Program-made: the position numbers and the translations under genes
Source: Bacillus multifaciens
GTDB taxonomy: Bacteria; Bacillota; Bacilli; Bacillales; Bacillaceae_G
Length of the DNA stretch: 64,000 nt
NCBI RefSeq assembly: GCF_030756675.1
Contig: NZ_JAVBXD010000022.1
Coordinates: 16,043 to 80,042 of the forward strand
Direction: 5' to 3'
The notes under the pieces: generated by a model
Told to the model about the DNA's origin: nothing
What the model saw: only the letters and a program-made list of their open reading frames with translations
Databases searched by the model: none
Part shown: one piece after another, positions 22,030 to 47,178 of the stretch
Layout of the letters: every line of letters begins with the position of its first letter
Position numbering within the stretch: position 1 is the stretch's first letter

Positions 22030-22130
22030 ATTCCTTCTCTCTATTTGTTTTTTGTAAAAAATTGTCGTTATCCTTACATTTACTCCGATTTTTCTGAATA
22101 GTATTATATTTTATATAGATACTTTTTGCT

Positions 22131-22255
22131 GAATCCATATGGAACGGAGGACCCGTTATTGTAAGGAGAAACTTACTAGGGGTGAATCTTGAACAGTAGG
22201 GTACCCTTCAAGGCCCGAACCCGACAGCTAACTTCGTAAGCATAACTGGAGGGAT
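22131..22255 (+). ncRNA. c-di-AMP riboswitch (ydaO/yuaA type)
   Basis: The leader contains the conserved blocks of the ydaO aptamer in order: GGAGGACCC, AGGGGTGAATCTTG, AGTAGGGTACCC, GGCCCGAACCCGACAGCTAA, CTTCGTAAGC and CTGGAGGG. CCCTTCA and TGGAGGG can pair as in the known fold. This class binds cyclic di-AMP and normally turns genes off. No intrinsic terminator lies between it and the next ORF. AACGGA in the 5' aptamer strand (22143-22148) is complementary to TCCGTT just before the downstream ATG, so control of translation is possible (inference). Confidence 0.85.
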
Positions 22256-22327
22256 TACTTATGTTATGACTGAAGAACAACGATACTTACCTTATTACTT
22301 TACTACTAAGAAAAAGAGGGATCCGTT

Positions 22328-26712: not shown

Positions 26713-27867
26713 TTGAAGTACTTTATTTATTTTATTGTTATCATCGCATTTTTCGATACATTTTCACAGTTACCAATTATGAGTACATATGCACAAAATC
26801 TTGGAGGGACTCCTCTTATTATCGGTCTTGTCGTAGGAATGTACTCATTTGCTAATATGATAGGTAATATTATTGCTGGTGCCACTGTTGATAAATATGG
26901 GCCAAAAAGAGTTCTTTATATTAGCATGGGCATTACAAGTTTCATAGTTTTATTGTATATCTTTGTTCAAAGCGGCGAACAACTTATTATCGTTCGTTTT
27001 CTGCATGGATTTAGTGACGGCTTCTTAATACCAGCTGCCTTCACGTTCTTATCAAAACAAACAAAATCAACAAAACAAGGGAAAGCAATGGCTATATCTG
27101 GTGCAGCTGTTGGAACAGCAGCTATCATCGGCCCCGCTTTCAGCGGAATTATGAAGGCAAAAGCTGGTATACATTGGGTCTTCATTACAGTTTCAATCTT
27201 AATGATACTTGGTACAATGATTTCCCTTTTCTTACTACCAAATTATACAACAAGAACAAAACCATCACGGATACAAATGATGAACAAAGAAGAAATGCTT
27301 GAATTATTAAAGTTCGAACCATTATTACAAGCATATATCGGTGCTTTCACCTTAATGTTTTCACAAGGAATTGTCACCTATATGCTACCGGTAAAAATAG
27401 AAGCCTTAGGACTAAAAACATCTACAACAGGAATGATGCTTAGTGTTTTTGGAATTACTGCCATCCTCTTCTTCTTACTACCTACAAATCGGATATACGA
27501 TTTCTTTAACCGTCAAAAAATGATGGTCATTGGTATTGCAGTAATGGCACTTGCGCTATCATTACTTGGTATATTTACAACAAAGAGCATGCTTTTCGTT
27601 GTAATGATGATTTACGGAATTGGATTTGCTATCCTCTTTCCTTCTATTAACGCCTTACTTGTCGAAAATACAACAGAAGACAATCGCGGAAAAGCATTTG
27701 GATTATTCTATGCCTTCTTCTCTTTAGGCGTTGTGGCCGGCTCATTTACAATTGGAGCAATCGGTGCCTCACCGAGCGTAAGCTTTGTAATTGGAACGGC
27801 TTTCTTGCTTACCTTTGCTTCAACAATTTATATACGAGGAAGAGGAAAAAAAACAATGATGGGATAA
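26713..27867 (+). CDS. MFS transporter, multidrug/sugar efflux-like
   Basis: A 384-residue, 12-helix major facilitator. Motif A is AGATVDKYGPKRVL near residues 54-67, and VRFLHGFSDGFLIPAAFTFLS follows. A frame opening at 26599 would include the decayed repeat, so it is rejected; TTG at 26713 has GAGAGGTG at the right distance and gives MKYFIYFIVIIAFFDTF. No regulator gene is adjacent on the same side. Substrate unknown. Confidence 0.8.
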   Translation: MKYFIYFIVIIAFFDTFSQLPIMSTYAQNLGGTPLIIGLVVGMYSFANMIGNIIAGATVDKYGPKRVLYISMGITSFIVLLYIFVQSGEQLIIVRFLHGFSDGFLIPAAFTFLSKQTKSTKQGKAMAISGAAVGTAAIIGPAFSGIMKAKAGIHWVFITVSILMILGTMISLFLLPNYTTRTKPSRIQMMNKEEMLELLKFEPLLQAYIGAFTLMFSQGIVTYMLPVKIEALGLKTSTTGMMLSVFGITAILFFLLPTNRIYDFFNRQKMMVIGIAVMALALSLLGIFTTKSMLFVVMMIYGIGFAILFPSINALLVENTTEDNRGKAFGLFYAFFSLGVVAGSFTIGAIGASPSVSFVIGTAFLLTFASTIYIRGRGKKTMMG

Positions 27868-27886
27868 CCCCTATCATTGTTTTTTC
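27850..27886 (+). terminator. Terminator overlapping end of MFS gene
   Basis: AAAACAATGATGGG / CCCCTATCATTGTTTTTT, a stem with one bulge. The left arm is inside the last codons of the MFS gene. Confidence 0.8.
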
Positions 27887-27995
27887 ATTTCATAAGGAAG
27901 AATCTAATGAAATAAGAATGGCTTTCGACAATTCCCCCGGAAATATTTTTTCCCTCGGCACAACTCGATAAAATATTTAGGGATTTATTCCAAAC

Positions 27996-38902: not shown

Positions 38903-40363
38903 TTAGGAAACCTCTTCTTGTTTATCTTTTTTATATTCATGCTCCCAAAAATCAGCATTTTTAATCCCGAGTTCTTGAGGATCAAATACAGGATCTTTTC
39001 CTTCTTTCTTCTGCTTCTCATAGTCTTTTAGTGCTAACAGTGCTGGTTTTTGTAAGAATAGAATCGCAATAATATTTACCCATGCCATAATACCAACACC
39101 AATATCTCCAAGGGCCCATGCTGTCGCTGCCGTTTTCACACATCCATAAAATACGACTGCTAAGAAGATAAACTTCAATATTAATATCATCCAAGGGCGG
39201 TCTTTATCACGATTTAAATAGGCAATATTTGTTTCTGCAATGTAGTAGTATGCCATAATCGTTGTAAATGCGAAGAAGAAGAGAGAAATGGCAACGAAAC
39301 CGCTTCCAAATCCAGGGAACACAGATTCAACAGCAGCTTGTGTATACCCAGGGCCTGGTTCTGCACCATTCAAGTTATTCACAAGAAACCCTTTTCCGCT
39401 TACATCAAATACGTTATACATCCCCGTAATAATCATCATAAACGCCGTTGCAGAACATACGAATAATGTATCAATGTAAACAGAAAATGCTTGTACAAGT
39501 CCTTGTTTGACCGGGTGAGATACTTCCGCGGCAGCTGCTGCATGAGGTCCTGTTCCTTGACCGGCTTCATTTGAATAAATACCGCGTTTTACACCCCAAG
39601 AGATTGCTAAACCAATAATTCCTCCAAATGCAGCATCTAACGCAAATGCACTTTTTATAATAAGCATAAAAGCATCTGGCAATTTATCAATGTTCATCCC
39701 AACAATTAAACAAGCTACAAGAATATACCCAATTGCCATAAACGGTACAACAACTTGTGCTACATTTACAATACGCTTTACACCACCAAAAATAATAAGA
39801 CCTAATACAACAACTAATATCGCTCCCGATACAGACGTATTAATGCCAAAAGCTGTTTCCAAGCTCACTGCAATACTGTTTGCCTGTACACCAGGAAGCA
39901 ACATTCCCGTCGCAAGAATTGTCGCCATCACGAAAATAATCGCATACCATTTAATCCCTAGTCCCTTTTCAATATAATACGCCGGACCACCACGAAATTG
40001 TCCTTTATACTTAGTCTTATAAATTTGTGCAAGTGTTGATTCGACATAAGCAGAACCAGCTCCTAAAAAGGCTACAAGCCACATCCAAAAGACCGCTCCT
40101 GGCCCCCCGAAGGCAATTGCTGTCGCCACTCCAGCAATATTTCCTGTTCCAACTCGCCCTGATAAAGAAAGTGCTAACGCTTGGAACGAAGAAACACCAG
40201 CTTCTGACTTTTCCCCTTGAAATGTAAGCTTTACCATTTCACCTACATATCGAACTTGCAAAAATTTCGTTCGAACTGAAAAATATAAACCTACTCCTAA
40301 ACATAAGTAAACAAGTGCAGGACTCCATACAATCCCATTTAACCAATTAACGAAAGTTTCCAC
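38903..40363 (-). CDS. Sodium:alanine/glycine/glutamine symporter, AGCS family (AlsT-like)
   Basis: A 486-residue symporter with about 11 helices. The AGCS signature blocks are present: [30 protein letters not shown] (residues about 67-96; split motif [11 protein letters not shown]) and [25 protein letters not shown] (259-283). Sodium drives uptake of small neutral amino acids. Its location next to a glutamine ABC importer suggests glutamine or alanine as substrate. Ribosome site AGGAGGAG. Confidence 0.9.
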
Positions 40364-41698: not shown

Positions 41699-41827
41699 AT
41701 GACCACTCCTCTCTTCTCTACATAATTCGTCATAAACTTTAAAATCACTGCTGAGAATTGAAAAAAGGAGTAGAACATTCTACGCCTTTTCCATTCCAAT
41801 AATAAGGAATTTATATCGATAACAGCA

Positions 41828-43532: not shown

Positions 43533-44420
43533 ATGGAATGGCATCAAATTGAGAATTTTATTGCCGTCGCGAAATATAACCATTTTACAAAAGCAGCGAA
43601 AGAACAATTAGTGTCTCAGCCTGCTCTTAGCCGTTCGATCTTAAAATTAGAAGAAGAGCTTGGTGTACCATTATTTATACGAGAAGGAAAAACAATCTCC
43701 TTAACTAAGTATGGAGAAATGTTTTTAAGAAGAGCGAAACAAGCACAAAGTGCATTACATACTGGTATCGCGGAAATACAGGAAAAAGTTTCTCCTGATA
43801 GAGGAGAAATTTCAATTGCGTTTTTGCACACTTTAGGCACTCGTCCAATTCCAGAGATTGTTGCTAATTACAAAAAGATTTATCCAAAAGTGACATTTCA
43901 AATGTATCAGGGAGCTAATATTAACCTTTTACAAAAAGTAAAAGATGGAGTAGCAGACATATGCTTGTCTTCTCCACCAATTCCACATGAACAAATTGAA
44001 TGGGAAACATTAAGAATAGAACCTTTATATTTGACAGTTTCAAAAGCACATCCACTTGCAAAGCAAAGTAGTGTGTCATTTCAAGAACTAGGAAATGAAG
44101 AATTTATCTGTTTTAAAGATGGTTATGGCCTTCGTTATATATTTGATCAAATGTGTGAATCTCTTCAAGTTCACCCTAAAATTACATTTACGGGAGAAGA
44201 AATTACAACAATCTCTGGATTAGTATCCGCTGGACTTGGTATAGCCATCTTACCGAAAGTCAAGGAGTTTAACCAATCTCAACTACATTTTCTAGAAATT
44301 ACTGACTATCCTTGTGAACGAACCATTGCCTTAGCTACAGCGCATAATCATTATTTATCTCCTGCCGCAAAAACGTTTAAGGAATTTATTATAAGACATT
44401 TCCAAGAATACACTCCTTAA
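43533..44420 (+). CDS. LysR-family transcriptional regulator
   Basis: A 295-residue regulator. The helix-turn-helix is FIAVAKYNHFTKAAKEQL and SQPALSRSILKLEEELGVPLF (residues about 8-53); the effector-binding domain follows (SIAFLHTLGTRPIPEIV). Divergent from the MFS gene with 120 bases between the starts, the classic LysR arrangement. An ATATCGATAAC stretch in the gap could be part of its site. The inducer is unknown. Confidence 0.9.
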   Translation: MEWHQIENFIAVAKYNHFTKAAKEQLVSQPALSRSILKLEEELGVPLFIREGKTISLTKYGEMFLRRAKQAQSALHTGIAEIQEKVSPDRGEISIAFLHTLGTRPIPEIVANYKKIYPKVTFQMYQGANINLLQKVKDGVADICLSSPPIPHEQIEWETLRIEPLYLTVSKAHPLAKQSSVSFQELGNEEFICFKDGYGLRYIFDQMCESLQVHPKITFTGEEITTISGLVSAGLGIAILPKVKEFNQSQLHFLEITDYPCERTIALATAHNHYLSPAAKTFKEFIIRHFQEYTP

Positions 44421-44469
44421 AAGTTTATGATTTTAAAGTGCGCTTTTTAAGACAGGTTTCGTAAACGTA

Positions 44470-44512
44470 AAGTAACTCCAAAATATACAATAAAAGTTGA
44501 TTTTGGAGTTAT
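44470..44512 (+). terminator. Terminator after lysR
   Basis: TAACTCCAAAAT / ATTTTGGAGTTA stem followed by TTTTTTG, 50 bases after the stop. Confidence 0.8.
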
Positions 44513-44696
44513 TTTTTGTTTACTTCTCTCCATGTTCATCAAGAAATATTACAAACGCTCAGTAACAACCTTAATATTCCTTGTCAAAAAAGAAAGAAAT
44601 ACAAAAACATACTTTCATCAATATGAATATTTAATTACCAAAATGAATTTTTATAAAAAATATCTTTTTTCTCTTTCCTTTCTAAAAGACATGTAG

Positions 44697-44702
44697 TATA
44701 CT
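44697..44702 (+). promoter_or_regulatory. Possible -10 box of attenuated APC transporter gene
   Basis: TATACT, 37 bases before the leader peptide ATG, in a stretch of AT-rich DNA. The -35 element is not clear (TTTCC/TTTCT). Low confidence. Confidence 0.35.
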
Positions 44703-44738
44703 TACTTCAAAATCAGAGGAGAAAGGGAGCAAAGAACT

Positions 44739-44795
44739 ATGCTTACTAATACAACTGTAGTTACATTTGCACAAAAACATCATCATCATACGTAA
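44739..44795 (+). CDS. Leader peptide with four consecutive His codons
   Basis: An 18-codon ORF, MLTNTTVVTFAQKHHHHT, starting at ATG after AAAGGGAG. Four CAT codons lie at 44778-44789, two codons before the TAA stop. It is followed within a few bases by mutually exclusive RNA hairpins and an intrinsic terminator, then by an amino acid transporter gene. This is the architecture of a his-type attenuator leader, comparable in principle to the enterobacterial hisL. It is too short for ORF callers. Confidence 0.8.
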   Translation: MLTNTTVVTFAQKHHHHT

Positions 44796-44913
44796 ACCCT
44801 TGAAACCTAGCGGAAAAATTTACGCGTAGGTACAAGGGTTATTCCCGTTGTACCTACGTTAGGCAAAGAGCCATGTAGGTATTTTTTATCTACATGGCTC
44901 TTTTTTATTTCCA
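44796..44913 (+). promoter_or_regulatory. Transcription attenuator (histidine-sensing leader RNA)
   Basis: Segments that can pair in exclusive ways: (1) AACCCTTG + ACCTAGCG with CGCGTAGGT + CAAGGGTT; (2) CGTAGGTACA with TGTACCTACG (10 bp perfect); (3) TACCTAC with GTAGGTA, plus inner GGC/GCC; (4) the terminator GAGCCATGTAG / CTACATGGCTC followed by TTTTTT. Segment 3 consumes the left arm of the terminator. Which structure forms should depend on ribosome position at the His codons. The polarity cannot be settled by eye. Confidence 0.75.
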
Positions 44914-44976
44914 AAAAACACTAGGTACAAAAAATTATAAAACAAAAAAACTATCATCAAAAGGAGTTAGACAATC

Positions 44977-46401
44977 ATGGAAACAAAAAAATGGGGTTTA
45001 TGGATTTTAACAGCATTCGTTGTTGGAAATATGGTTGGTGGCGGCGTGTTTATGCTTCCGGCAAATTTAGCACAAGTATCTGGACCAATGGGATCTACAC
45101 TTGCATGGACAATTACCGGGCTAGGTGTATTTATGATTGCACTCGTGTTTGGAAACTTAGCAATGCGAAAACCAAATTTAAAAGCAGGTCCGCAAAGTTA
45201 TGCCGAGGCAATGTTCACTTCACCAAAAGCTGGTAAAGTTGCTGGTTATAGCATGGCGTGGGGATACTGGGCGGCAAACTGGGCGGCAACAGCTTCTGTC
45301 ATTATTTCATTTGCAGGATATTTATCTACATTTTTCCCAGTTCTGCAAAGTAAACAAGTTTTGTTCACGACAAATGGTTTCTCATTAGAACTAGGAAAAG
45401 CCTTAACATTTGCTGTATGTAGTGTGATGCTATGGGGCATTCAATATATTCTTTCGCAAAATATTGATCGTGCTGGTAATATGAATTTACTTGCAACTGT
45501 TGCTAAAATTATTGGCTTTACGATGTTTATTATCATTACATTATTCATTTTTAATGCAGCGAATTTCGGCGATGGGCAAACGTTTATGGATGAGGCTGGA
45601 AAATCTATTCCATTAGGCGGACAAATCAATGCTGCTGCTATCGCAACACTTTGGGCGTTTATTGGTATTGAATCAGCTGTTATGCTTTCAAACCGTGCAA
45701 AGTCACAGAGCGATGTAAAAAAGGCAACGATTTTCGGATTAGTAATTGCTCTTCTTATTTATGTAGCCATTACATTGTTAACAATGGGTGCTCTTCCACA
45801 AGAGGCGCTAAAAGGATCACAAAAACCATTAGTTGATGCATTAAACATGGCGATCGGTAATAAAGGTGCATACATTATGGCCTTTCTAGCACTTGTTTCT
45901 CTATTCGGTTCTACAGTAGGCTGGATCGTTGTAAGTGCAGAAGTTCCATATCAAGCAGCAAAAAGCGGACTATTCCCTGCATTCTTTGGAAGAACAAATA
46001 AAAAAGGAAGTCCGAAAAACTCATTGTTATTAACAAATATCATGACACAAATATTCTTATTCTCTACCATTTCTGGGTCAGTATCAGAAGCGTATAACTT
46101 TGCAATTGTTGTCGCTACGCTTGCTTATTTAATTCCATATCTTGTTTCAACAATGTATCAATTAAAACTCGTTATTACTGGTGAAACATATAACAACATG
46201 CAAGGCTCTCGCAAATTAGACGGAGTCATCACAGTACTTGCTCTTCTTTATTCCATTTGGGTTATTAAAACAGGAACAGCTGATATGAAAACTTTCTTAC
46301 TAGGAATCGGATTATTTGTAATTGGACTCGTTCTTTATCCATTCATTATGAAAAATACAATTGAAAATAAACCAGATACACTTGATACAAAAGTCAGTTA
46401 A
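44977..46401 (+). CDS. APC superfamily basic amino acid antiporter-like transporter
   Basis: A 474-residue, 12-helix transporter of the basic amino acid/polyamine antiporter (APA) family (relatives: ArcD, LysI/YvsH, HdcP). Characteristic stretches are VVGNMVGGGVFMLPANLAQVSGP near residues 16-38 (GxG loop), MAWGYWAANWAA, and IATLWAFIGIESAVMLSNRAKS. A good AAAGGAGTT site precedes the ATG. The upstream His-codon leader implies that histidine, or a derivative, is the physiological signal and probably the substrate. Import by proton symport or exchange for histamine-like product are both possible. Terminator follows directly. Confidence 0.88.
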   Translation: METKKWGLWILTAFVVGNMVGGGVFMLPANLAQVSGPMGSTLAWTITGLGVFMIALVFGNLAMRKPNLKAGPQSYAEAMFTSPKAGKVAGYSMAWGYWAANWAATASVIISFAGYLSTFFPVLQSKQVLFTTNGFSLELGKALTFAVCSVMLWGIQYILSQNIDRAGNMNLLATVAKIIGFTMFIIITLFIFNAANFGDGQTFMDEAGKSIPLGGQINAAAIATLWAFIGIESAVMLSNRAKSQSDVKKATIFGLVIALLIYVAITLLTMGALPQEALKGSQKPLVDALNMAIGNKGAYIMAFLALVSLFGSTVGWIVVSAEVPYQAAKSGLFPAFFGRTNKKGSPKNSLLLTNIMTQIFLFSTISGSVSEAYNFAIVVATLAYLIPYLVSTMYQLKLVITGETYNNMQGSRKLDGVITVLALLYSIWVIKTGTADMKTFLLGIGLFVIGLVLYPFIMKNTIENKPDTLDTKVS

Positions 46402-46455: not shown

Positions 46456-47178
46456 CTATTGTTTCCCTTTTAACATACGATATGCTGCAAATCCAGCGAT
46501 TCCAAATCCAGCAATTGCAGAGAATTGCCATAATGTTGGTCCATTATCAATATAGATCCAGCCATCTCTGTCTGGAACCCAATCGATTGTATTTTTCGCT
46601 GGGCAAACTTGTCCACTTACGTTTGATTTTAATGCAAAGCGAATTTCCCTTTGCTTATCTAACCCAAATTCTTTTAAGGGGACTCGGAATTCTATTTGCT
46701 TCTTATTACTACTCACGGAAAGAGTTTGTTCTTGAAAACTTCCCGCTGTCACTTTTACAGCATATTGGTTTCCTTTTCCAACATTACCTACCCATACAAT
46801 TGGATAGCGATACTTCATCATTTGACATTTCCCATTAATTTCTACATATTCCCACTTCTCTTGTCCACCTTGCGCGGCATCTGGAAACACAACATGAAAT
46901 GTCCAGCTATCTTTATGATGTCCTGCTGCTTGTCTCTCTACATATAAATATAAATATTCACCGTCAGAATAATATTTAACACCCGTAATATCTTCATGAT
47001 TCATTCCATTTGGTACATCACCTTTTATATCGGAAATATACGGCATATTAGTCCAATCAGAAAAATTTCCGTCAATTGTAATAGGAGGTTGCTTAGTGGC
47101 TGCGAATACTTGTAGTTTAGCGATATATAATACACTTACAATTACTAAAAATGACACAAGTAGTTTTCTATATTTCAT
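46456..47178 (-). CDS. Firmicu-CTERM-type exported protein, putative XrtG substrate
   Basis: A 240-residue exported protein. It has a signal peptide (1-26), a DOMON/CBM9-like domain starting ITIDGNFSDWTNMPYISD and including two Cys, and a C-terminal tripartite tail: IDNGPTLW, then hydrophobic FSAIAGFGIAGFAAY, then basic RMLKGKQ. That tail is what is expected of the Firmicu-CTERM sorting signal processed by exosortase G, and it is the last gene of the xrtG cassette. A strong GGAGGAG site precedes the ATG; a family B repeat lies just upstream of it. Ligand unknown; a carbohydrate is plausible for this fold. Confidence 0.75.
   Translation of the reverse strand: MKYRKLLVSFLVIVSVLYIAKLQVFAATKQPPITIDGNFSDWTNMPYISDIKGDVPNGMNHEDITGVKYYSDGEYLYLYVERQAAGHHKDSWTFHVVFPDAAQGGQEKWEYVEINGKCQMMKYRYPIVWVGNVGKGNQYAVKVTAGSFQEQTLSVSSNKKQIEFRVPLKEFGLDKQREIRFALKSNVSGQVCPAKNTIDWVPDRDGWIYIDNGPTLWQFSAIAGFGIAGFAAYRMLKGKQ

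What the first reader, a model, noticed from the sequence alone, without database searches (positions are those of the whole stretch)
44739..44976. His-codon leader peptide and attenuator before an amino acid antiporter-like gene
Seen: an 18-codon ORF with a ribosome site carries four CAT codons just before its stop, then mutually exclusive stems, then a perfect intrinsic terminator, then an APC transporter gene. Known: this is the layout of ribosome-mediated attenuation (hisL of enterobacteria); Bacillus usually uses T-box or protein-based control for amino acid genes. Inference: the transporter is controlled by charged His-tRNA and handles histidine. The drawn pairings give two possible polarities. 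If region 1 (AACCCTTG) is masked by a stalled ribosome, the 10-bp middle stem forms and leaves the terminator free. If it is not masked, TACCTAC may pair with the terminator's left arm. That would mean expression when histidine is abundant, as for an exporter.
Basis: partly seen in the sequence, partly recalled or inferred. Interest (0 to 1): 0.85.

Follow-up and report, generated by a model that had tools for sequence, protein, structure and literature searches.

The report
Histidine-sensing attenuator before amino-acid transporter
A short stretch of RNA before a transporter gene appears to measure histidine by how smoothly ribosomes read a run of histidine codons, and most likely switches the transporter on when histidine runs short; this kind of switch was already known for histidine genes in these bacteria, and the transporter looks like a new target.

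Summary
An 18-codon ORF (44739-44795, MLTNTTVVTFAQKHHHHT) precedes five mutually exclusive RNA segments, an intrinsic terminator (44865-44903) and an APC transporter gene (44977-46401). The element is conserved before orthologous transporters in Ectobacillus panaciterrae and Bacillus sp. 165 (2 of 50 loci). A covariance model built from it and five relatives finds elements with His-codon leaders before hisS (14 of 14 class-wide loci read), hisZ-hisG, hisD and a YuiF-like permease. The alternative helices covary. So this is a ribosome-mediated histidine attenuator, and the transporter is probably a histidine importer. Region 1 (44795-44802) lies downstream of the His codons, so a ribosome starved at His1 or His2 leaves it free: 1:2 and 3:4 form and the terminator is blocked (ON). 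A ribosome at the stop codon masks region 1, so 2:3 and the terminator form (OFF). His-leader attenuators before hisS*/hisZ of bacilli (PMC2965389) and the B. cereus group his operon (PMC9413887) are published; the APC transporter was not named in the passages I read or surfaced by six paper searches. New member of a known kind; regulation itself is untested.

The parts
44697..44702 (+). possible -10 box TATACT, by eye
   Evidence: inspection (AGTATACT also in L019); the consensus scan found no sigma-70 promoter in 44400-45000, so weak
44723..44729 (+). leader ribosome-binding site AAGGGAG
   Evidence: AAAGGGAG also before the leaders of L048 and L019
44739..44795 (+). leader peptide ORF MLTNTTVVTFAQKHHHHT-stop
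   Evidence: leaders MFNVTLFAQLHHHT (L048) and MFNTTMFVQLHHHT (L019)
44778..44789 (+). four histidine codons (sensor)
44795..44812 (+). segment 1 (core 44795-44802 AACCCTTG), pairs with segment 2
   Evidence: 1:2 covariation
44823..44840 (+). segment 2, pairs with 1 (ON state) or 3 (OFF state)
44844..44858 (+). segment 3 (core TACCTAC 44851-44857), pairs with 2 (OFF) or 4 (ON, antiterminator)
44865..44881 (+). segment 4, terminator left arm; core GTAGGTA 44875-44881 pairs with segment 3 in the ON state
44887..44903 (+). segment 5, terminator right arm, followed by T-rich tail
44959..44966 (+). ribosome-binding site AAAAGGAG of the transporter gene
44977..46401 (+). APC-family transporter, 474 aa, predicted histidine importer
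   Evidence: Pfam AA_permease_2 E 3.9e-46; TIGR00905 352.9 bits, below its cut-off 409.05; nearest solved: AdiC

Best explanation
A transcription attenuator worked by a translating ribosome controls the transporter gene. With little charged His-tRNA the leading ribosome waits with the first or second CAT codon in its A site. Its front edge then lies upstream of segment 1, so 1 pairs with 2, segment 3 is left free and captures the left arm of the terminator (3:4), and RNA polymerase reads on (ON). With enough histidine the ribosome runs to the stop codon and covers segment 1. Segment 2 then pairs with 3, the terminator 4:5 forms and transcription stops before the transporter (OFF). Shown here: the parts, their conservation, covariation, and the predicted fold change with ribosome position. 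Inferred: actual stalling, termination in the cell, and that the transporter imports histidine.
For: Element conserved with the transporter in L048 and L019. 3:4 helix: 94.8% of 77 cells paired in 11 sequences, 22-48% when slid, 7 double-sided changes; in 24 distinct sequences 95.8% of 167 cells, 26-53% when slid, 15 double-sided changes. 1:2 core 89.8%; 2:3 with 4:5 93.3% and 94.5%. Folding of the window's transcript just before segment 5: A site at His1 or His2, P(3:4) 0.95-1.00 and P(2:3) 0.00-0.04; at His4, Thr or stop, P(2:3) 0.87-0.93 and P(3:4) 0.00-0.05, for assumed front edges 11-15 nt. The same switch between His1 and stop is predicted in 20 of 23 elements (criterion: expected 2:3 pairs under half at His1 and over half at stop). 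Shuffle control 1 of 300. Histidine-gene company: hisS in L055 and 14 of 14 of L125-L138 above the NF009085 cut-off, hisS fragment in L078; hisZ and hisG in 12 of 12 of L061, L062, L064-L072, L076; hisD in L079; NhaC/YuiF-like permease in L074 and, by eye, L075. Precedent for hisS*/hisZ: PMC2965389 section 10.
Against: No expression data. Only 2 of 50 transporter loci carry the element (E below 0.01), so the transporter is mostly regulated otherwise. 3 of 23 elements (L078, L079, L062) do not show the predicted equilibrium switch and L073 only just does. In the 14 class-wide hisS elements 2:3 exceeds 0.5 with the ribosome at stop in only 5 of 14, so there kinetics would have to decide. L078 and L079 have only two adjacent His codons. 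The ribosome front edge is a recalled value and His3 is borderline. For 3:4 the number of pairs with double changes (2) and of pair types does not exceed shuffles. The transporter falls below the cut-offs of both histidine-histamine antiporter models, so its substrate rests on regulation alone. No consensus promoter was found.
Confidence: 0.85

Rival explanations
1. Inverted attenuator for an exporter: stalled ribosomes mask segment 1, so 2:3 and the terminator form in starvation and the gene is expressed when histidine is plentiful.
For: The segments permit it for a ribosome stalled at His4 (P(2:3) 0.87-0.88).
Against: First stalls are expected at His1, where segment 1 is free for every front edge tested, 11-15 nt. 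The same element precedes hisS, hisZ-hisG and hisD, which make little sense as excess-induced genes.
Confidence: 0.05
2. Ligand-dependent nascent-peptide arrest (TnaC- or SpeFL-like, recalled): free histidine or another small molecule acts on the ribosome holding the leader peptide, rather than scarcity of charged His-tRNA.
For: Leaders before the transporter (FAQKHHHHT, FAQLHHHT, FVQLHHHT) and many before hisS (FLQQHHHT/G, FPQLHHT) share F-x-Q-x before the His run; an arrest at the stop would mask segment 1.
Against: Leaders of the hisZ, YuiF-like, hisD and L055 hisS classes lack F-x-Q-x; common descent also explains the motif. His codons just ahead of segment 1 persist in all classes, as expected for codon sensing.
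Confidence: 0.08
3. The terminator belongs to an independent small RNA or is constitutive, and the His-rich ORF is incidental.
For: A transcript of about 200 nt ending at the terminator would be possible; only 2 of 50 transporter loci have it.
Against: Covariation of helices that exclude each other; His-rich leader in 20 of 22 family-level matches and 14 of 14 class-level loci read, nearly all before histidine genes.
Confidence: 0.02

Closest known systems
Histidine leader-peptide attenuator of bacilli before hisS* and hisZ (Naville and Gautheret 2010, PMC2965389; sections 10 and 12 and passages read)
   Same: Short ORF with a stretch of His codons, terminator, same lineage; hisS and hisZ leaders are found by the model built here
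   Different: Target here is an APC transporter; the parts read name none for this element (their supplementary tables could not be read)
B. cereus group his-operon RNA attenuator (Ashniev et al. 2022, PMC9413887; abstract, passages and section 8 read)
   Same: Leader with three to five His codons in a row immediately before the attenuator structures
   Different: Their Table 3, as seen in a passage, lists only the his operon for attenuators; their alignments are in supplements that could not be read
Enterobacterial hisL attenuator (Rfam RF00514 His_leader; mechanism recalled)
   Same: His-codon stall decides between antiterminator and terminator; the five segments here correspond to hisL segments B to F
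   Different: No counterpart of segment A recognised, so lack of leader translation should lean to ON rather than OFF; no Rfam match
T-box riboswitch (RF00230)
   Same: Senses tRNA charging in Firmicutes amino-acid genes
   Different: No T-box in the window or in 40 of 50 transporter loci scanned at gathering score; sensing here is through the ribosome

Membership tests
Histidine leader-peptide attenuator of Bacilli (hisS*/hisZ type) | translatable short ORF with consecutive His codons | tested here: met
   in relatives
Histidine leader-peptide attenuator of Bacilli (hisS*/hisZ type) | mutually exclusive antiterminator and intrinsic terminator supported by covariation | tested here: met
Histidine leader-peptide attenuator of Bacilli (hisS*/hisZ type) | sequence/structure kinship with elements before hisS and hisZ | tested here: met
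   model R1 (6 sequences, one of them before hisS) finds 12 hisZ-hisG leaders (E 2.0e-5 to 3.1e-4) and 14 further hisS leaders (E 1.7e-10 to 1.3e-6); the published sequences themselves were not read
Histidine leader-peptide attenuator of Bacilli (hisS*/hisZ type) | read-through rises when charged His-tRNA falls | not testable with these tools
   no expression data; fold prediction only
Rfam RF00514 His_leader | match to the covariance model at the gathering score | tested here: not met
   (only match in the window is a c-di-AMP riboswitch)
T-box riboswitch RF00230 | match to the covariance model at the gathering score | tested here: not met
APC amino-acid permease (Pfam PF13520) | score above gathering threshold | tested here: met
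   158.3 bits, cut-off 27
Basic amino acid/polyamine antiporter TIGR00905 | score above curated cut-off | tested here: not met
   352.9 bits, cut-off 409.05
Histidine-histamine antiporter (TIGR04298, NF040512) | score above curated cut-off | tested here: not met
   176.5 of 750 and 204.7 of 725 bits

The most novel reading that the evidence does not exclude
One RNA attenuator family has spread through Bacilli by being copied between hisS, hisZ-hisG, hisD, a YuiF-like permease and an APC transporter. It forms a histidine-starvation regulon without a regulator protein, in a five-segment form that is ON by default when the leader is not translated, and it marks this APC clade as an unrecognised class of histidine importer.
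Probability: 0.5. Interest if true: 0.6.

Novelty: new member of a known kind. Interest (0 to 1): 0.48.

Why it matters
It gives a substrate prediction, histidine, to an APC transporter clade whose sequence models leave it undecided. It ties hisS, his-biosynthesis genes and two kinds of permease into one RNA-controlled set in Bacilli, where T-boxes or the HisR repressor are the usual explanation (PMC9413887). None of the 4227 Rfam models matched the window's element at gathering score; the alignments made here could seed a family.

Tried and rejected
Exporter/excess polarity: rejected on footprint arithmetic and on target genes. T-box or other known riboswitch: no match upstream of the transporter (for the window; for 40 of 50 loci, where the few Rfam matches found are other elements). 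Copies in plasmids, phages (blastn) or viral contigs (one exact pattern): none. Other copies in the window: weak model matches at 44866-44904 on the minus strand (the terminator itself), 27838-27987, 41716-41820 and 39935-40009 (E 0.003-1.7); no ORF with four His lies there, so dropped. Weak family- and order-level matches: of the loci printed, L061 is a real hisZ element with an interrupted run (HDHH), L063 is a tRNA gene region, and L077, L080-L087 and L089-L091 look by eye like plain terminators; L088 printed nothing and the G263 and G267 matches had no locus and were not read. Of the 20 class-level matches, 14 new loci were read, 2 belong to G001 already seen, and 4 had no locus. The leader test could not orient L095-L112 or L115 and L117-L121, so nothing is claimed for those paralogues. 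One search's helix figures for L125-L138 were out of register and were replaced. The hisZ class was left out of the covariation counts because its segment 3 aligns poorly.

Full report
Observation. The window holds an ORF, ATG 44739 to TAA 44795, encoding MLTNTTVVTFAQKHHHHT, with CAT codons at 44778-44789. It is the only ORF of up to 60 codons in the window, both strands, with four His in a row; three others have three, all starting at TTG. A 17-pair intrinsic terminator follows at 44865-44903 (shuffles 0.1 on average), and an APC transporter gene begins at 44977. The leader RNA is far more stable than shuffles (z -7.9).

Relatives with the same gene. A protein search of one genome per species gave 50 loci, none named as a B. 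cereus-group species. Two of the 50 carry the element upstream of the transporter: Ectobacillus panaciterrae L048 (leader MFNVTLFAQLHHHT) and Bacillus sp. 165 L019 (MFNTTMFVQLHHHT). Start codon, His run and stop are kept, and the conservation runs through segments 1 to 5. A homologue of that protein sits downstream of the transporter in L048 (5596-6174), so those genomes may have lost the transporter and kept the switch (inference); their best matches to the transporter are 53% identical.

Relatives with other genes. A covariance model R1 was built from six sequences: window, L048, L019, L053, L054, L055. In the family of Ectobacillus it matches 17 of 19 genomes, 22 matches at E up to 1e-3, 5 of them its own training sequences. 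Reading the loci, 20 of the 22 have a His-rich leader, one of these interrupted (HDHH, L061); L063 and L077 do not. An order-wide draw matches 32 of 397 genomes, 36 matches, many weak; the only new loci with a His leader among those read are L078 and L079, each with just two adjacent His codons. A class-wide draw matches 19 of 398 genomes at E up to 1e-5, 20 matches; all 14 new loci with DNA (L125-L138) have an HHH leader, and the gene downstream exceeds the cut-off of the histidine-tRNA ligase model NF009085 (540 bits) in 14 of 14, at 640-683 bits. L055 is also histidine-tRNA ligase (610.2 bits), L078's incomplete 302-aa piece gives 498 bits, and L079 is histidinol dehydrogenase (TIGR00069 323.6, cut-off 243.8). 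In 12 of 12 loci of the hisZ class (L061, L062, L064-L072, L076) HisZ- and HisG-like genes follow. HisG passes its cut-off in L062 and L064; HisZ is best matched by TIGR00443 but below its cut-off (164.4 and 194.4 of 271.65). Ten of these 12 elements are nearly identical in sequence, so they are not independent. L074 matches Pfam Na_H_antiporter and Na_H_antiport_2 but no NCBIfam model; calling it YuiF-like, a histidine permease in PMC9413887, is recalled. L075's similar gene was judged by eye and begins some 400 nt beyond the element. L073 precedes an alpha/beta hydrolase at a distance and is unexplained.

Structure and covariation. Five segments give four helices in two incompatible sets: 1:2 with 3:4, and 2:3 with 4:5. 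In 11 aligned elements 94.8% of 3:4 cells are standard pairs (22-48% when slid), 89.8% of the 1:2 core (19-72% when slid; L060 is misaligned there), and 93.3% of 2:3 plus 4:5 (32-49% when slid), with 7, 7 and 21 double-sided changes. In 24 distinct sequences 3:4 stays at 95.8% with 15 double-sided changes and 2:3 plus 4:5 at 94.5% with 48. The covariation score is reached by 0, 1 and 0 of 500 shuffles and by 0 and 0. Against: for 3:4 the number of pairs with double changes (2) and of pair types does not exceed shuffles, nor do pair types. The alignments were fitted to the OFF structure, and segments 3 and 4 take part in it, so 3:4 is not fully independent of it.

Mechanism. Partition-function folding of the transcript up to the start of segment 5 was done with the ribosome-covered part removed. 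With the A site at His1 or His2, 1:2 (P 0.71-0.98) and 3:4 (0.95-1.00) form for every assumed front edge of 11-15 nt. His3 is borderline. From His4 to the stop codon 2:3 forms (0.87-0.93) and 3:4 vanishes (0.00-0.05). The front-edge range is recalled. Across 23 elements the switch between His1 and stop is predicted in 20; L078, L079 and L062 fail and L073 barely passes. Across the 14 class-wide hisS elements 3:4 dominates at His1 in 14 of 14, but 2:3 dominates at the stop in only 5 of 14, so equilibrium folding alone does not explain OFF there. A null test gave 1 of 300 shuffles reaching the window's ribosome-dependent gain of terminator-arm pairing (L048 1, L019 2, L060 1, L064 1 of 300). With no ribosome the window's ensemble leans to 3:4 although its single best fold has 2:3; L074, L075 and L078 lean to 2:3. 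The default-ON prediction is therefore tentative. Starvation should switch the transporter on. This fits hisS, hisZ-hisG and hisD and argues for import, not export.

The protein. Pfam AA_permease_2; best NCBIfam TIGR00905, below cut-off; histidine-histamine antiporter models far below cut-off. The nearest solved structure is the arginine/agmatine antiporter AdiC (E 8.3e-46). Sequence does not fix the substrate; histidine is inferred from regulation.

Literature. Six searches of the open library. PMC2965389: sections 10 and 12 and passages read; it reports a His leader peptide before hisS* and hisZ in bacilli. PMC9413887: abstract, passages and section 8 read; it reports B. cereus group his-operon attenuators with three to five His codons and absence of HisR there. 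Neither names an APC transporter in the parts seen; supplements were not available, so it may be listed there.

Changed on checking. The gene identities of L125-L138 and of the hisZ class now rest instead of on eye. The shared F-x-Q-x motif in transporter and many hisS leaders is now told; it raises the peptide-arrest rival from 0.06 to 0.08 and lowers the main reading from 0.87 to 0.85.

Verdict. A well-supported histidine attenuator with a probably new target gene and a corrected polarity; the kind of system is known.

Noticed in passing
window 22117-22257: c-di-AMP riboswitch (RF00379, 91.5 bits), the only Rfam match in the window at gathering score.
   Followed up: no
L004 3855-3926; L007 3836-3916: The transporter orthologues of two other Bacillus species have an unrelated His-rich short ORF (MMITIKCEFHSIKHHHRYHHHSC; MFMIITIKNNYNSIMAHHHQNHHHSC) ending about 75-85 nt before the gene, with no terminator seen by eye; possibly an independent, translational histidine control.
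   Followed up: partly
L048 5596-6174; L054 1657-2112: A protein family of about 150-190 aa without Pfam match, downstream of the transporter in one genome and directly behind the attenuator in two others; a candidate histidine-linked gene.
   Followed up: partly
L073 1461-1632: An attenuator with leader ending HHHF in Ectobacillus panaciterrae stands before no evident histidine gene; the next sizeable ORF is an alpha/beta hydrolase.
   Followed up: partly
leaders of window, L048, L019, L078, L125-L138: Residues F-x-Q-x recur just before the His run in transporter leaders and most of these hisS leaders; descent or a role of the peptide itself.
   Followed up: no
L022 3293-3866: Group II intron pieces just upstream of the transporter orthologue of Weizmannia acidilactici.
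   Followed up: no
window 46456-47178 (-): Convergent next gene encodes a Firmicu-CTERM sorting-domain protein (TIGR04145, 54 bits, cut-off 50).
   Followed up: no
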